Below are positions 52,469 through 58,357 of a stretch of DNA of 64,000 nt, in pieces. A program made the position numbers and the translations under genes. The DNA lies in NCBI RefSeq assembly GCF_027587195.1, contig NZ_JAPDDP010000003.1, positions 62,001-126,000 on the forward strand, read 5' to 3'. The notes under the pieces are model-generated. The model was not told where the DNA came from. It was given only the letters and a program-made list of their open reading frames with translations, and searched no databases. Numbering within the stretch: position 1 is the first letter of the stretch; every line of letters begins with the position of its first letter. Source of the DNA: Solirubrobacter phytolaccae. GTDB taxonomy: Bacteria > Actinomycetota > Thermoleophilia > Solirubrobacterales > Solirubrobacteraceae.

Positions 52469-54004
52469 TCAGAGACGGTCGTCGCGATGCACCACACGCC
52501 CGCCGACCACGGTCAGCCAGACCGGGGTGTCCGGGAGCTCCGCGGCGGGCGTGTCGATCGGGTCGCGCGCCAGGCCGGTGAGGTCGGCGCGCATCCCTTC
52601 GCGGATGCGGCCGGTCCACTCGTCGCCGGCCACGAGCGCGGGCGCCGTCGTGTAGCCGGCCAGCGCTTCCGTCGCCGTGATCCGTTGCGCGGGAACCACG
52701 TCGCGGAGCTGGGCGGCGGCGAGGCCGCGGCGCGGGTCGGCGTCGGCCACGGGCCAGTCGGATCCCAAGGTCAGGAGCGCGCCCGCGTCGAGCAGGTCCC
52801 GCATCCGGAACGCGCGGGCGGCTCGCTCCGGCCCCAGCCGCTCGTTCCAGACGCCGGTGCCGTCCGCGCGGACCGAACTCACGTGGACCGGCTGCATCGA
52901 GGCGACCACGCCCGCGCGCGGGATCGACCGGACGAGGTCGTCGGGGATCGCCTCCAGGTGCTCGAGCCGGTGCCGGACGCCGGGCGCCGCGCCGGCGCGG
53001 ATGTAGGCGCCGAGCGTGAAGCGCACGGCGGCGTCGCCGATCGTGTGGGTCGCGAGCTGGAAGCCCGCCACGGCGAAGCGCGCCATCACCGCCGCCATCC
53101 GCTCCGGGTCGGGCCAGAGCGGCGCGTGGCTCTCGCCGTGGGTGTCGGGCGCCTCGAGCCAGGCCGTGCCCGCGTCGATCACGCCGTCGGCGAAGCACTT
53201 CACGACGCCGCCGCGCCAGAGCCGTCCGCGGACGTCCTTCAACGTCAGCAGGTGCTCGATCTGCTCGTCGGTGACCTCCGGCGTGATCCAGAACGGGACG
53301 CGCAGGCGCATCGTCAGATCGCCCGCGCCTTCGAGCTCGCGGAGCATCTCGAGCGTCGAGAGGTCGCCGTCCATCATGTGCCCGCCGGTCAGCCCGAGCG
53401 CGTTCAGCTCTCGCAGGATCTCGGCGTGGCGGGCCCGCAGCTGCGGCCAGCGCAGCTTCGGCGCGGCGCGCAGCACGAGGTCGCCCGCGGTCTCGCGCAG
53501 CACGCCGGTCGGGGCGCCGTCGTCGTCGACCACGACGGACTCGTGGTCGCCGGTGACGTGCGCGAGCTGCAGCGCCCGCGGGGAGGCGAGCGCCGTGTGC
53601 AGGTCCGCGAGCTGGACGAACACCGCGGCGCCGCGGCACGCCTCACCGATCTCGACCGGCGTCGGCGCGACGTCGTAGTCCAGCCCCCAGGCGAACAGCC
53701 AGCCGCGCTGCGGTTCCGCGGCCGCGAGCCGCTCCAGCGCCTCGGCCGGCGATGCGCACCCGCGCAGGTCCACGCCGCGCGTGACCTCCGCGCCCCAGAA
53801 CGGGTGGATGTGCGAGTCGACGAGCCCGGGGATGAGGGCCGCGCCGCGCGCGTCGATCACCTCCGTGCGGGCGTCGCAGGCCGCGCGCACCTCGTCCCCC
53901 ACGGCGACGATCGTCCCGCCGCGCACCGCCACCGCACGGGCGAACGGGCGCTCCGGGTCCAGCGTGCGCACCCGCGCGCCCACGATCGCGAGATCAGCGG
54001 CCAT
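52469..54004 (-). CDS. Amidohydrolase (YtcJ-like, amidohydrolase_3)
   Basis: Cytoplasmic metal-dependent hydrolase of 511 residues. N-terminal strands (LAIVGARVRTLDPERPFARA) lead to the metal motif LVDSHIHPFWGAEV, with later GGVVKCFADGVIDAGTAWLE, QLATHTIGDAAVRFTLGAYI and HRLEHLEAIPDD, and the closing TLGSDWPVADADPR. Substrate unknown (the family acts on formamides, ureas and similar). I chose ATG 54004 because the longer frame would run past the promoter of the divergent gene at 54081. Confidence 0.85.
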   Translation of the reverse strand: MAADLAIVGARVRTLDPERPFARAVAVRGGTIVAVGDEVRAACDARTEVIDARGAALIPGLVDSHIHPFWGAEVTRGVDLRGCASPAEALERLAAAEPQRGWLFAWGLDYDVAPTPVEIGEACRGAAVFVQLADLHTALASPRALQLAHVTGDHESVVVDDDGAPTGVLRETAGDLVLRAAPKLRWPQLRARHAEILRELNALGLTGGHMMDGDLSTLEMLRELEGAGDLTMRLRVPFWITPEVTDEQIEHLLTLKDVRGRLWRGGVVKCFADGVIDAGTAWLEAPDTHGESHAPLWPDPERMAAVMARFAVAGFQLATHTIGDAAVRFTLGAYIRAGAAPGVRHRLEHLEAIPDDLVRSIPRAGVVASMQPVHVSSVRADGTGVWNERLGPERAARAFRMRDLLDAGALLTLGSDWPVADADPRRGLAAAQLRDVVPAQRITATEALAGYTTAPALVAGDEWTGRIREGMRADLTGLARDPIDTPAAELPDTPVWLTVVGGRVVHRDDRL

Positions 54005-54080
54005 CCACCCAATGATGGTGGAGGCCGTTCCCACCCCAGGGTGAGGCGAGCGACCCCGCGCGGCGGCGAGGATCAAGCGC

Positions 54081-54710
54081 ATGATTCGCCCCCTCCTCCC
54101 CGTGCTCTCCGTCCTGGCCGTGTTCGCGGCCCTCGCTCCCTCCGCCCACGCCGCTTCCAAGAGCTGCACCCGCGACGGCGCGACGCTGCTCGCCGCCTCC
54201 GGCAAGGTGCGGGTCGTGTCCGTCAAGGAGAAGCCGCAGAACTCCGAGTCGCGCCGCGACCGGATCTACGGCTGCTGGACGACGACCGGCCGCCGCTTCA
54301 CGCTCTTCCAGTCGCGCGACTTCGGCCTGGACTCGATCGAGCGCGACCACTTCGAGATCGTCGACGGGCGCTTCATCGGCGCGATCCGCAGCTTCGAGGG
54401 CGGCGCGAGCGAGTCGCGCACCGCGGCCACGTTCGACGCTCAGAAGCACAAGGCCGTGCACGACACCGATCCGTGCGACGAGGTCTCCGCCGGCGACTTC
54501 ACCGGGGTCGAGGACGCGGTGTTCTTCCGCAATGGCGGAATCGCCTACACGTGCTTCAAGCAGTCCCGGATCGTCGACGGCAAGGGCGACCGTGTGCTGG
54601 AGCCCAACGGGGTCGTCGTCACGAGCCTCGCCGTCTCGGCCAACTCCAACAGCTTCAGCGAGCGGCTCTTCTACCTCGCCGACGAGGCGCCGAAGAGCGT
54701 GCAGCTCTAG
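54081..54710 (+). CDS. Secreted hypothetical protein
   Basis: Protein of 209 residues with signal peptide MIRPLLPVLSVLAVFAALAP. The mature part has four cysteines spaced as two likely pairs (SKSCTRDGATLLA, IYGCWTTTGRRFTL, DPCDEVSAGD, AYTCFKQSRIV), suggesting a compact disulfide-bonded beta fold. No family recognised. It marks the left edge of the high-GC region before the island. Confidence 0.65.
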   Translation: MIRPLLPVLSVLAVFAALAPSAHAASKSCTRDGATLLAASGKVRVVSVKEKPQNSESRRDRIYGCWTTTGRRFTLFQSRDFGLDSIERDHFEIVDGRFIGAIRSFEGGASESRTAATFDAQKHKAVHDTDPCDEVSAGDFTGVEDAVFFRNGGIAYTCFKQSRIVDGKGDRVLEPNGVVVTSLAVSANSNSFSERLFYLADEAPKSVQL

Positions 54711-54786
54711 GTCTCTGCCAACGCGCTGTTAAGGGCGCCGCACAAACACGGACCAGCCACGATGACCAGACTGTGCCTGAGAGCGA

Positions 54787-55638
54787 TTATGTCAAGGCGA
54801 TTTCGACGTTGTGCCTCGAGACGCGCCCAGGAAGGATTGGCGCGTCGAGCGCGGCGGACATCCCAATATCCGAGATGGGAGTCGTGTACAGATCGCGACC
54901 GAACCAGGCGCGGTATCGGTCGATGATTCGCTCTGAGTCATCGACCGACGTCCCCTCGCGGGCGAGCCTTTCCTTCTGGTAGGCGACATGGCCGGTCAAC
55001 GTGCCGCGAGAGGTCAGAACTCGATGACCCGGCAGCCCCGCTGCCTCGGCGCGCTTGACGTATGCGGGGAGCGCTCGCACGTACGCGCGCTTTCCGCCGA
55101 TGAGCCTCAGCAGGATGTCGTACGTCAACACGTTGCCCGCCGGCACCTGACCTAGCACCCACGCGGCTCGGCTCGCCATTGCGTCCGGGACAACAGGGAA
55201 CCGCGCGTGATCGTCGAGCACCACCCGTCCGCCCCTAAGAATTGCGCCGTCGCGCACGACGACCCCTAGGGCGCCTCGCTCGCCGACGAGTGCCCTGTAC
55301 GTGGCGGCGTCGACGAATTTGCGGAGCGCAGAGCAGATCTCGCAGGCGTGGGTTATACGGACGACGGCGCCCGATTCGAATACAAGAACCCGACCTGAAG
55401 TCAGGTCTTCCTCGCCGAAGCCCGCCACGACGGCGTTCGCACGAAGAGAGCACGCGTCGGTGCCGAGACGATCTAGCACTTCCTGCCGGCAGATCAGTAC
55501 CTGTCGCGGCCCGAGTGGACCTCCATTGCAATCGCCGAGCAACCCGACCCCGACTCGAGCGTCTAGCGCCGGCCGCGGTTCCATTGGACAACCCGCCTTG
55601 GGCTTCACAAGTACCTCAGTGACCGTTCCGACCTGCAC
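54787..55638 (-). CDS. MOSC domain fused to an alkyltransferase-like (ATL) domain lacking the acceptor cysteine
   Basis: Protein of 283 residues. Residues about 1-140 are a MOSC domain (GVGLLGDCNGGPLGPRQVLI; NAVVAGFGEEDLTSGRVLVF; VVRITHACEICSALRKFVD), a fold that binds molybdenum cofactor or moves sulfur. Residues about 150-235 resemble the O6-methylguanine methyltransferase DNA-binding domain (RAAWVLGQVPAGNVLTYDIL; then GLPGHRVLTSRGTLTGH). The active-site PCHRV is PGHRV, so it cannot accept an alkyl group, like ATL proteins that flag lesions for repair. Start GTG 55638. It is the last of three minus-strand genes in the low-GC island. Confidence 0.75.
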   Translation of the reverse strand: MQVGTVTEVLVKPKAGCPMEPRPALDARVGVGLLGDCNGGPLGPRQVLICRQEVLDRLGTDACSLRANAVVAGFGEEDLTSGRVLVFESGAVVRITHACEICSALRKFVDAATYRALVGERGALGVVVRDGAILRGGRVVLDDHARFPVVPDAMASRAAWVLGQVPAGNVLTYDILLRLIGGKRAYVRALPAYVKRAEAAGLPGHRVLTSRGTLTGHVAYQKERLAREGTSVDDSERIIDRYRAWFGRDLYTTPISDIGMSAALDAPILPGRVSRHNVEIALT

Positions 55639-55680
55639 GAGACAACTGTTCGCCGGGTGAGGCGTGCGTCCTCCGTTCGT

Positions 55681-56058
55681 CTACTTGACTGAGAACACGA
55701 TCGGCGCAGGAGACAGATCGAGATCGATCACGCGTTGCCCGGCCGACTCTGCAATTCGTCTGGCGACGGCCCGGCGCGACTCGTCCGGACCGCCGATGAG
55801 ACACGTGCGGTGCCTAAGGGCAAGCCCAGCCGCCCAGGTGTCGCCCTCTCTGCCTTTCGCCTCCAACAAGGAGGGCCGCGAAACGTAGTACGTATCGATC
55901 TGTACACACGTCCGCGCGATCTGAATCCCTTCGGCCTCAGATCGAAGATCTAGGACAAGTTCGATGTCTTCCCCCGAGAACAACTGCGCGAGTCGCTCGT
56001 CGTCGCCGGCCTGCGCCGTAAACAACGAGCGATTGAAACGAGCCTGATGCCCTGTCAT
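55681..56058 (-). CDS. Small protein resembling a degenerate DUF488 domain
   Basis: Protein of 125 residues from ATG 56058, whose first bases overlap the stop of the upstream gene (ATGA). By eye its start (RSLFTAQAGDDERLAQLF... IELVLDLRS) parallels the DUF488 start of the divergent neighbour (TIGHSHHDVALVVSLL... IKRVVDIRS). Its end (TCLIGGPDESRRAVARR) parallels that neighbour's TALFCLEEEPERCHRY, but without the Cys-His. It may be a non-catalytic partner of that DUF488 protein. This is my inference from pattern only; no database support. Confidence 0.55.
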   Translation of the reverse strand: MTGHQARFNRSLFTAQAGDDERLAQLFSGEDIELVLDLRSEAEGIQIARTCVQIDTYYVSRPSLLEAKGREGDTWAAGLALRHRTCLIGGPDESRRAVARRIAESAGQRVIDLDLSPAPIVFSVK

Positions 56059-56873
56059 TCGCCGGTCACCTCTCTCCAGGTTGCCCGTGGGACGGCAAGG
56101 GTGACCCTGGCTTTCCCACGCGCGTCGTACTCGGCGCCGAGCCGCGCCTCGCGGCTCAGTTTCGTTTCGCGCCACCATTCGGCCCGAACCTGAGGCCTTA
56201 CTCCCGTGAGCGGAACATCATCCATGTTCGCGCGCAGATCCGGGTCTGGCCGAGCTGGCTCCTTTGCTCGAATAGCGAGTTCGCTGAATGGCGACCATCG
56301 AGTCGGAGCCTGCCCGGGGTGCCTCCCGAAGCCGAGAATCTCCGACCAGTGGTCGAGTGCAACCGCCGTGCGGAGGCTCACACGCACGATCTCGCCGAGG
56401 TCGGCGTCTTGGTCGGCTCCAAGGACACGCAAGTCCCATCCTTCCACGGCTCCGAGCGCCGCGACAAGACTCGCCAGCTCAAACCCCGCATCGTCCGCAC
56501 GCGGCACGATCAGACTCAGGATGTCGGTTTCGGGCGCTCGAATACGCGCCGCGACATATGCAGCGAGACTTGCCACGTCGCCATCAGCATCGACATCAAT
56601 TGCCTCCCAGCCATGTTGCGGGCGTGTCTCGGAGAGATAGCCCGCGAAAAGGCAACCGCTGTGACCCCCGGAGTACCAGTGCGCCTGCACGGCCACGACC
56701 AGTTCATCGTCCGAAACAAGATCGCGCTCACACCGGACGAGTCCACGACGTCGCAGTGCGACGACATAGTCGTGTCGAGTCGGGTACACGAACTCATTTC
56801 CAGCGCCGCTGTCGTAGACCCCCGTCGGGACAAGGGCTTCGAGCGCAGATTGGATTTCGTGGTTCGTCCTCAT
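56055..56873 (-). CDS. Hypothetical protein, first gene of the island operon
   Basis: Protein of 272 residues from ATG 56873 (MRTNHEIQSALEALVPTGVY). Not recognised. Visible features: an N-terminal helical part with a possible winged-helix look (RHDYVVALRRRGLVRCERDL), a central acidic region (WEAIDVDADGDVASLAAYVA), a strand-helix stretch (DILSLIVPRADDAGFELASL), and an Arg-rich C-terminal beta tail (ARVTLAVPRATWREVTGE). Base composition is lower in GC than the genes outside the island. Coupled to the 125-residue gene by ATGA overlap and divergent from the DUF488 gene across 48 bp. Confidence 0.6.
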   Translation of the reverse strand: MRTNHEIQSALEALVPTGVYDSGAGNEFVYPTRHDYVVALRRRGLVRCERDLVSDDELVVAVQAHWYSGGHSGCLFAGYLSETRPQHGWEAIDVDADGDVASLAAYVAARIRAPETDILSLIVPRADDAGFELASLVAALGAVEGWDLRVLGADQDADLGEIVRVSLRTAVALDHWSEILGFGRHPGQAPTRWSPFSELAIRAKEPARPDPDLRANMDDVPLTGVRPQVRAEWWRETKLSREARLGAEYDARGKARVTLAVPRATWREVTGE

Positions 56874-56888
56874 CGATCGGTACGATCG
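56874..56888. promoter_or_regulatory. CGATCG-GTA-CGATCG double palindrome in the island divergent promoter
   Basis: Two CGATCG hexamers separated by GTA, in the 48-bp gap between the divergent 272-residue gene and the DUF488 gene, directly against the start of the former. GATACA at 56911-56916 could be a -10 element for a leaderless DUF488 transcript. A regulator site is plausible but unproven. Confidence 0.4.
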
Positions 56889-56921
56889 TTTTGAGGAGAC
56901 TTTACGTAGCGATACAGACAG

Positions 56922-57521
56922 ATGCCGAAACGACGAGAGCAACATGGGTCCACGCGGATCTGGACGATTGGACACTCTCACCACGATGTGGCGCTGGTCG
57001 TATCGCTACTGCGAGCGCATGACATCAAACGCGTCGTCGACATCCGCTCCCGTCCGGCATCGCAGTGGGCGCATCAGTTCGACAAGGTCCGCATAGAACC
57101 GACACTGCACGCCGCCGAGTTCGCCTATAGCTGGCGTGGCGAACTGCTAGGCCAGCGTCCTGAGGGAACGGAGTTCTACGACGAGGACGGATGCACGCTG
57201 TATGACCGCGTAGTCGCTAGACCGGGATTCTCGGATGAATATGACGCGCTAAAGGCAACTGCTAACGAACAGCGGACTGCGCTGTTCTGCCTTGAGGAGG
57301 AGCCCGAGCGCTGTCATCGCTACCACATGCTGGGCATCATGCTCACGCGCGATGGGTTCGAGGTGCTCCATATTCGCAAGACCGGTCGCGTCGAGTCTCA
57401 GAAGGACGTTTTCCTTCGACTGGGCGGTGAGCAGCGGTCACTGCTGGACGCCCCCAAACCGTGGCGTTCGCCGATGCCCATGGAAGGCGGGCACGGCGTG
57501 GCCGGAAAACCAACTCGCTGA
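56922..57521 (+). CDS. DUF488-family protein
   Basis: Protein of 199 residues, a Rossmann-like fold of unknown activity. Family hallmarks: TRIWTIGHSHHDVALVVSLL, KRVVDIRSRPASQWAHQFD and the Cys-His motif in LEEEPERCHRYHMLGIML. The extra C-terminal 30 residues are unconserved. It belongs to the island of lower GC (hand counts: 57% and 60% in two 60-base lines) and is divergent from a gene pair that includes what looks like a degenerate DUF488 copy. The gap to the convergent Crp gene holds a 6-bp GTCCGT/ACGGAC stem. Confidence 0.82.
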   Translation: MPKRREQHGSTRIWTIGHSHHDVALVVSLLRAHDIKRVVDIRSRPASQWAHQFDKVRIEPTLHAAEFAYSWRGELLGQRPEGTEFYDEDGCTLYDRVVARPGFSDEYDALKATANEQRTALFCLEEEPERCHRYHMLGIMLTRDGFEVLHIRKTGRVESQKDVFLRLGGEQRSLLDAPKPWRSPMPMEGGHGVAGKPTR

Positions 57522-57628
57522 GGTAGAGAGGCTCCGCCGTCCGTGATCGACGAGCGACGGACACGCGCCACCGCATTGCGTTTCTCTCCGCCCGCCAATT
57601 TTATCCCGACCACAGGCAGTAAAGGCGA

Positions 57629-58357
57629 CTAAGACAGCGCCGCCGCCAGCTTGTGGTGGCGCAGCTTCTCCGGCGGATCGCCGTGGAGGAGCCACGCGCC
57701 GTCGTCGCGGCGACTGACCTTGCCGGACTTGGCCAGCGCGCCCATCGCCGTCGTCACGGACGGGCGGTGGGCGCCGACGATGCTCGCCAGCCGCTCGTGG
57801 GAGAGCGGCAGCGGCACGACGATCCCGTCCGGCGTGACCTTGCCCCAGCGCTCCGCGAGGTGCCAGAGCGTCAGCAGCAGCCGGTCCTCGACCCGGTTGT
57901 GATGGGCGATCGCGAGCGCGACCGCGAGATGGTGCGCGCGCCGCGTGCCGCGGTTGAAGAGCTCCACGCCGAGCTGCGGCCACGGGTTGATGCGGGTGAC
58001 GAGCGCGTGGTCGAGCACCGCCAGCTTCGTCGGCTCGAGCACCTCCCAGCCGACCTCGGCGCGCACGTGCGAGCCGGCGTCGTCCCAGCTCCAGGGCCGC
58101 ATCACGTCGCCGGGACCGATCAACTCGATGCAGTGGCGGCCGAGCACGTCAACCTCACGCGACAGCAGGCCTTCGGCGATCATGAACCCGCGGTGGTGCA
58201 CGTCGGGCTCGAGCGCGTTCGCGACGTCCCACTCGCCGGGGCTCAGACGTTGCACGCGGGTCAGCGCCTCATGGCGCGCCCGCTCGAGTTGCTCGTCGTC
58301 GAGCTGCTCGGCGAGGTCCGGGTCGGCGTCGACGATGGAGATGGTCGATGCGCTCAC
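57629..58357 (-). CDS. Crp/Fnr-family transcriptional regulator
   Basis: Protein of 242 residues. A cNMP-binding-like barrel (HRGFMIAEGLLSREVDVLGR, CIELIGPGDVMRPWSWDDAG) is followed by a winged HTH (LSHERLASIVGAHRPSVTTA MG region). The ligand-binding arginine-serine pair of true CRP is not apparent, so the effector may not be cAMP. Start GTG 58357. The gene is divergent from the esterase operon with a 216-bp gap containing GC-rich hairpins, and may regulate that operon. Confidence 0.82.
   Translation of the reverse strand: MSASTISIVDADPDLAEQLDDEQLERARHEALTRVQRLSPGEWDVANALEPDVHHRGFMIAEGLLSREVDVLGRHCIELIGPGDVMRPWSWDDAGSHVRAEVGWEVLEPTKLAVLDHALVTRINPWPQLGVELFNRGTRRAHHLAVALAIAHHNRVEDRLLLTLWHLAERWGKVTPDGIVVPLPLSHERLASIVGAHRPSVTTAMGALAKSGKVSRRDDGAWLLHGDPPEKLRHHKLAAALS

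What the first reader, a model, noticed from the sequence alone, without database searches (positions are those of the whole stretch)
54787..57521. Low-GC island with a possible uncharacterised DNA-directed gene set
Four genes of clearly lower GC sit in one 2.8-kb block: a three-gene operon (272-residue unknown, degenerate DUF488-like, MOSC-ATL fusion) and a divergent DUF488 gene. Pairing a true DUF488 with a look-alike lacking its Cys-His, together with a lesion-recognition-type domain, hints at a transferred DNA-modification, repair or defence cassette. No integrase, tRNA or direct repeat was seen.
Basis: partly seen in the sequence, partly recalled or inferred. Interest (0 to 1): 0.66.

Follow-up and report, generated by a model that had tools for sequence, protein, structure and literature searches.

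The report
Transferred four-gene paired-DUF488 cassette
A four-gene, 2.9-kb block was inserted from elsewhere between two ordinary genes of a GC-rich bacterium, and it is an unusual variant of a suspected but untested anti-phage gene set that probably acts on altered DNA bases.

Summary
Four genes (UNK, DEG and MOSC-ATL as an operon; a divergent DUF488) form a 2.9-kb block of 62.8% GC in a 71.5% GC window, with GC3 0.66-0.73 against 0.93-0.98 in neighbours. Transfer is now shown: in four same-genus genomes the flanking convergent genes abut and the block is missing.

The exact four-gene set was found nowhere else, but its parts recur in overlapping sets. The DUF488 falls inside the 'B' clade of PADLOC's candidate defence system PDC-M45 (DuOB + DUF488-B + DUF488-C; 10 of 10 closest actinobacterial relatives sit in that triad). 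The unknown protein founds a rare family. Two Verrucomicrobia-type genomes pair it with both DUF488s, one inside a defence island; another pairs it with a MOSC-ATL relative. The MOSC-ATL fusion is an existing family, mostly solo in Nostocales.

DuOB is absent and DEG is only weakly DUF488-like, so this is a variant, not a PDC-M45 member. A weak model of UNK resembles the heme N-hydroxylase AglA. Best reading: a transferred, base-directed candidate defence cassette. Function is unproven; mechanism is inference.

The parts
54714..57628 (.). Inserted island (about 2.9 kb), absent from four syntenic same-genus genomes
   Evidence: blastn of the window against L142-L145: 54713 abuts 57629, flanks 77-91% identical; GC 0.628 against 0.715
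54787..55638 (-). MOSC-ATL fusion, 283 aa: MOSC-like N-terminal domain with CExC (C99, C102), alkyltransferase-like C-terminal domain with PGHR in place of PCHR
   Evidence: Pfam; full-length relatives at 31-38% identity; C102 kept in 63 of 64 and C99 in 62 of 64 aligned relatives
55681..56058 (-). DEG, 125 aa: short protein in the place of DUF488-C, lacking C..E....CHR; possibly a decayed DUF488
   Evidence: No Pfam (passing its cut-off), NCBIfam or PADLOC hit; 4.3 bits with a combined DUF488 profile, 1 of 1000 shuffles as good
56055..56873 (-). UNK, 272 aa: founding member of a rare family with invariant C-x-FA (C74, F76, A77) and TR-x-x-P (T191, R192, P195)
   Evidence: No family hit; relatives L109, L110, L106, L140; AF2 model pLDDT 59.9 with AglA as top five rows
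56874..56921 (.). 48-nt divergent intergenic gap between UNK and DUF488, presumed promoters
   Evidence: read from the sequence; promoters not tested
56922..57521 (+). DUF488, 199 aa, active-type C123 and C131-H132-R133; PDC-M45B clade
   Evidence: PF04343 3.6e-18, PDC-M45B 2.4e-37, tree 97/98
54081..54710 (+). Left flanking gene (secreted-type protein), not part of the cassette; convergent with the right flank
57629..58330 (-). Right flanking gene (regulator-like protein, 93-97% identical in four relatives), not part of the cassette

Best explanation
The block is a recently inserted cassette built on a paired-DUF488 candidate defence module. SHOWN: it is foreign in composition and absent from close relatives; its DUF488 belongs to the clade of the B subunit of PDC-M45; UNK is linked to DUF488-B and DUF488-C in two other genomes and to a MOSC-ATL relative in a third; no DuOB subunit is encoded in the cassette. 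INFERRED: UNK (with MOSC-ATL) stands in for DuOB as the substrate-selecting part. The ATL domain, which cannot transfer alkyl groups because the PCHR cysteine is replaced, flips out and holds altered purines in DNA. The cysteine-bearing DUF488, the MOSC domain and UNK then do redox or sulfur chemistry on that base or on nucleotides, so that foreign or damaged DNA is marked, blocked or repaired. DEG would be a non-catalytic partner or a decaying copy of DUF488-C. I put the identity as a transferred variant of a DUF488-pair module at about 0.8, the defence role at about 0.45, and any specific chemistry below 0.2.
For: Empty site in 4 same-genus genomes; foreign GC and GC3. PDC-M45B 2.4e-37. PDC-M45 is DuOB + DUF488 + DUF488 by PADLOC and Pfam. 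The 10 closest actinobacterial relatives of the DUF488 are all in that triad; the tree places the window DUF488 in the triad-B clade (97/98; 94/89 with actinobacterial triads). UNK beside DUF488-B and DUF488-C in L109 and L110, and beside a MOSC-ATL relative in L106, 32 nt apart on the same strand. Defence surroundings: L111 with CapP, E1/E2/JAB, PDC-S60, ResIII-methyltransferase helicase; triads beside Cas1/Csm6, CBASS, Cas1/Cas2/Cas6. MOSC cysteine C102 and ATL residues R188, P203, H205, R206 conserved.
Against: No genome among those searched (1,953 genome searches) has all four genes. DuOB, a defining PDC-M45 part, is absent from the cassette, and DEG does not match PDC-M45C. PDC-M45 itself has no experimental test that I could find, and two other PDC candidates, PDC-M63AB and PDC-S04, showed no activity when tested (PMC12409345). 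The cassette is not in a defence island in this genome, and relatives were not found in the phage records or viral contigs. DEG may be decay.
Confidence: 0.45

Rival explanations
1. A mutagen-resistance or DNA-repair cassette without any role against phages: the MOSC domain reduces N-hydroxylated bases as YiiM and YcbX do, the ATL domain flags bulky O6-guanine lesions for repair, and the other genes assist.
For: YiiM/YcbX MOSC proteins give resistance to N-hydroxylated base analogues (PMC5818509); the invariant MOSC cysteine is kept; ATL closest to Alkyltransferase-like protein 1, 2.1e-11; MOSC-ATL is solo in Nostocales; DUF488 stands beside a stand-alone ATL in Rhodococcus and Arthrobacter plasmids.
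Against: UNK and DUF488-B/C travel together without MOSC-ATL in a defence island. The DUF488s paired with stand-alone ATLs are in another clade.
Confidence: 0.25
2. A passenger in decay: the block was inserted but is no longer a working system, DEG being a broken DUF488-C.
For: DEG lacks the CHR motif and much of the domain; the cassette is in one of seven genus members; no DuOB.
Against: All four frames are open, UNK and DEG overlap by ATGA, and active-site residues of DUF488, MOSC and ATL are intact.
Confidence: 0.13
3. Small-molecule chemistry: UNK is a YqcI/YcgG-type thiolate-heme N-hydroxylase acting on a metabolite, with MOSC as its reductive counterpart, unrelated to DNA.
For: AglA rows top the structural comparison (Z 5.9-6.6 against 4.8 or less for the rest); invariant C74 aligns with the AglA heme ligand C44.
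Against: Model confidence is low (pLDDT 59.9); sequence profiles do not reach significance (1 of 200 column shuffles as good); no biosynthetic genes beside it; an ATL DNA-binding domain and the DUF488 pair point to nucleic acid.
Confidence: 0.08

Closest known systems
PADLOC candidate system PDC-M45 (DuOB PF22557 + DUF488-B + DUF488-C)
   Same: DUF488 of the B clade (PDC-M45B 2.4e-37; tree 97/98), second DUF488-like protein in the operon, third larger partner, mobile
   Different: DuOB absent, replaced in position by UNK (no profile similarity to DuOB) and MOSC-ATL; DUF488-B divergent rather than in line; DEG lacks the active site
DUF488-B/DUF488-C/UNK sets of genomes G790 and G1028 (L109, L110)
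   Same: UNK and DUF488-B next to each other on opposite strands, DUF488-C close by
   Different: There UNK and DUF488-B are convergent, DUF488-C is intact and lies beyond DUF488-B, a conserved ~105-aa protein stands beside UNK, and there is no MOSC-ATL
MOSC-ATL ('MGMT family protein') of Nostocales plasmids and chromosomes
   Same: Same two-domain fusion, 31-38% identity over 80% or more
   Different: Solo there, without UNK or DUF488
AglA, YqcI/YcgG heme-dependent N-hydroxylase (PDB 9ub3, 9ub5, 9uba, 9ubb, 9ubs)
   Same: Top five rows in structural comparison with the UNK model; cysteine ligand position aligns with invariant C74
   Different: No significant sequence similarity, no Pfam match; heme binding untested
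Alkyltransferase-like proteins (Atl1, PDB 3gva; 2kif)
   Same: DNA-binding domain, arginine finger, P-x-H-R with the cysteine replaced
   Different: Gly (window) or mostly Ile/Val in the cysteine position and fusion to MOSC
MOSC proteins YiiM/YcbX
   Same: Invariant MOSC cysteine, weak domain match
   Different: Short divergent MOSC with an extra cysteine (CExC), fused to ATL; molybdenum cofactor untested

Membership tests
PDC-M45 (PADLOC) | B subunit: DUF488 matching PDC-M45B | tested here: met
   2.4e-37, residues 11-168; tree 97/98
PDC-M45 (PADLOC) | C subunit: second DUF488 matching PDC-M45C | tested here: inconclusive
   DEG has no PADLOC hit; weak DUF488 similarity, 1 of 1000 shuffles as good
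PDC-M45 (PADLOC) | A subunit: DuOB protein in the operon | tested here: not met
   None of the four proteins matches DuOB or PDC-M45A; UNK against DuOB profile E 0.47
PDC-M45 (PADLOC) | Anti-phage activity | not testable with these tools
   No paper in the library names PDC-M45
DUF488 (PF04343) | Pfam match above the cut-off with C..E....CHR | tested here: met
   66.8 bits against 22.2; C123, E125, C131, H132, R133 invariant in A5
DUF488 for DEG | Pfam match or significant profile similarity | tested here: inconclusive
   no Pfam DUF488 hit; marginal shuffle test
Alkyltransferase-like protein (ATL) | AGT DNA-binding domain with the PCHR cysteine replaced | tested here: met
   PF01035 32.9 bits against 27; PGHR at 203-206
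MOSC | MOSC domain with its invariant cysteine | tested here: met
   18.6 bits in the window (below the cut-off of 22.7) but 29.5 in the full-length homologue L099; C102 in 63 of 64; the match of C102 to YiiM C120 rests on motif reading
MOSC | Molybdenum-cofactor-dependent N-reduction | not testable with these tools
   needs purified protein
YqcI/YcgG heme enzymes | Fold of AglA | tested here: inconclusive
   Z 6.6, 171 residues, 5.0 A, model pLDDT 59.9
YqcI/YcgG heme enzymes | Sequence membership (Pfam/HMM) | tested here: not met
   No Pfam hit for UNK or its relatives; profile test not significant
YqcI/YcgG heme enzymes | Cysteine axial heme ligand | tested here: inconclusive
   C74 invariant in five members and aligns with AglA C44; heme binding not testable here

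The most novel reading that the evidence does not exclude
The cassette is a base N-oxidation system: UNK, a divergent thiolate-heme N-hydroxylase, hydroxylates guanine-type nitrogens in DNA or nucleotides; MOSC-ATL finds N-hydroxylated bases in DNA by base flipping and reduces them back in host DNA; the DUF488 pair acts on unprotected modified DNA. This would be a defence or modification chemistry not described before.
Probability: 0.1. Interest if true: 0.88.

Novelty: new variant of a known kind. Interest (0 to 1): 0.55.

Why it matters
PDC-M45-type DUF488 pairs are common in defence neighbourhoods but have no known chemistry. A self-contained 2.9-kb variant, in which DuOB is swapped for a new protein family and a lesion-reading ATL domain fused to MOSC, points to altered bases as the substrate and makes that testable. 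It also defines a new protein family (UNK) and draws attention to an undescribed MOSC-ATL fusion.

Tried and rejected
UNK homologues by peptide-pattern scan of genome contigs: none; by tblastn in plasmids and phages: none. The G120 hit (L002) is a frame artefact. MOSC-ATL in phages and viral contigs: none. DUF488-B and UNK profiles in viral contigs: none. The first UNK model from 4 sequences was useless (pLDDT 41). Foldseek gave no significant match for the second (best 1.3e-2). UNK as a DuOB relative: no support, with shallow profiles, so not excluded. DEG profile tests were circular (DEG was in the profile) and were replaced. PDC-M45A model PDLC04656 rang in no genome, even those with DuOB, so it says nothing. 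PHROGs: nothing for the window proteins. The YqcI/YcgG probe was a family consensus written from memory; only the database sequences it retrieved were used for comparison.

Full report
OBSERVATION. UNK and DEG overlap by ATGA, DEG and MOSC-ATL are 42 nt apart, and UNK and DUF488 diverge from a 48-nt gap. The island is the most AT-rich stretch of its size in the window (0.628; next lowest 0.660; z = -4.6) and its genes have GC3 of 0.66-0.73 against 0.93-0.98 in four nearby genes (the value printed there for the amidohydrolase used a wrong frame and is ignored).

TRANSFER. The regulator-like gene right of the block has 93-97% identical orthologues in four of six other same-genus genomes. In all four the left and right flanking genes abut, with a few nucleotides between the convergent stop codons, and the block is missing. 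The insertion therefore runs from about 54714 to 57628. No target-site duplication, end repeat or tRNA was found, and none of the island's ORFs is an integrase. UNK occurs in none of the six other genus members and in 1 of 396 sampled genomes of the phylum, namely this one.

DUF488. The protein matches PF04343 and PADLOC PDC-M45B at 2.4e-37. PADLOC and Pfam scans of neighbours show PDC-M45 to be DuOB (A), DUF488 (B) and DUF488 (C). The ten closest actinobacterial relatives of the window protein all sit in such triads, while more distant ones are mostly solo. A maximum-likelihood tree places the window protein in the triad-B clade (97/98) and with the actinobacterial triads (94/89). On plasmids, triads lie beside CRISPR or CBASS genes. 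PADLOC 'PDC' systems are candidates from guilt by embedding (PMC12988326); I found no paper on PDC-M45, and two other PDC candidates tested negative in one host (PMC12409345).

UNK. It has no family match. Relatives came in three steps: L106 (Verrucomicrobiaceae MAG; 25% identity, 1e-6) directly upstream of a MOSC relative; L109 and L110 in the same class, each next to a DUF488-B on the opposite strand and close to a second DUF488; and L140 from the class of a Bradyrhizobium MAG. Five members share an invariant cysteine in GC-x-FA or AC-x-FA, and TR-x-x-P. The L111 copy lies in a defence island: CapP, E1/E2/JAB, PDC-S60, ResIII-methyltransferase helicase. The second model (pLDDT 59.9, pTM 0.65) gave no Foldseek match, but the second-look aligner put five AglA structures on top (Z 5.9-6.6; next 4.8). 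AglA is a YqcI/YcgG heme enzyme with cysteine 44 as axial ligand and Arg166 on the heme carboxylate (PMC12866846). In an alignment with real YqcI/YcgG proteins, UNK C74 falls on C44 and R192 on R166, yet profile scores are not significant (1 of 200 column shuffles as good; most members no better than shuffles). I treat this as a lead with a probability near 0.4. Z values of this size are common among unrelated folds.

MOSC-ATL. The fusion is an existing family: nine cyanobacterial plasmids and 46 genome loci, nearly all Nostocales plus a Latescibacterota MAG, without UNK or DUF488 nearby in the stretches fetched, L106 excepted. L106 and L107 have shorter forms with a reduced ATL part. The ATL half carries PGHR instead of PCHR, so it should bind but not dealkylate. 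The MOSC half keeps two cysteines, CExC; the second corresponds by motif to the invariant MOSC cysteine (C120 of E. coli YiiM; PMC5818509). MOSC proteins YiiM and YcbX act against N-hydroxylated purines (same paper).

DEG. In the place where triads carry DUF488-C, DEG aligns co-linearly with the two ends of DUF488 but lacks the CHR motif. Non-circular tests are weak: 4.3 bits with a DUF488 profile, 1 of 1000 shuffles as good. A decayed or repurposed DUF488-C is plausible, not proven.

INTERPRETATION. The set is best seen as two overlapping modules, [DUF488-B, DUF488-C, UNK] and [UNK, MOSC-ATL], joined in one transferred block. Position suggests that UNK with MOSC-ATL takes the place of DuOB. 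DNA-base chemistry follows from the ATL fold and from what MOSC relatives do; it has not been shown here. The block fails one defining feature of PDC-M45 (DuOB) and is inconclusive on another (C subunit), so it is filed as a variant of that kind, not a member.

Noticed in passing
window 54004-54017 (L142-L145): The four same-genus relatives have about 2.1 kb more DNA here, some 700 bp left of the island, so a second indel lies close to the insertion.
   Followed up: no
L153:4998-5818 and L154:4989-5818: On Rhodococcus opacus and Arthrobacter plasmids a DUF488 of a different clade is followed at once by a stand-alone ATL (MGMT family) gene, an independent DUF488-ATL pairing.
   Followed up: partly
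L109:2286-2603 and L110:2262-2585: A conserved protein of about 105 aa without family match stands 77 nt upstream of UNK in both Verrucomicrobia-type genomes.
   Followed up: no
L140:761-1462: Next to the UNK relative of G1171, a gene codes for a 233-aa protein with a GHADGDGH motif that reads like a DHH-type phosphoesterase; Pfam gave no match.
   Followed up: no
L111:1-16204: Dense defence island around UNK/DUF488 of G790: AAA ATPase, NERD protein, CapP, sigma-like, multiubiquitin/E2, ThiF/JAB, PDC-S60, ResIII-methyltransferase helicase.
   Followed up: partly
G000:C124:45643-46086: A second, distant DUF488 (30% identity, one in-frame TAG in the match) exists elsewhere in the window's own genome.
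   Followed up: no
L058-L105: MOSC-ATL fusions are frequent in Nostocales, often on large plasmids, with no conserved neighbour seen.
   Followed up: partly
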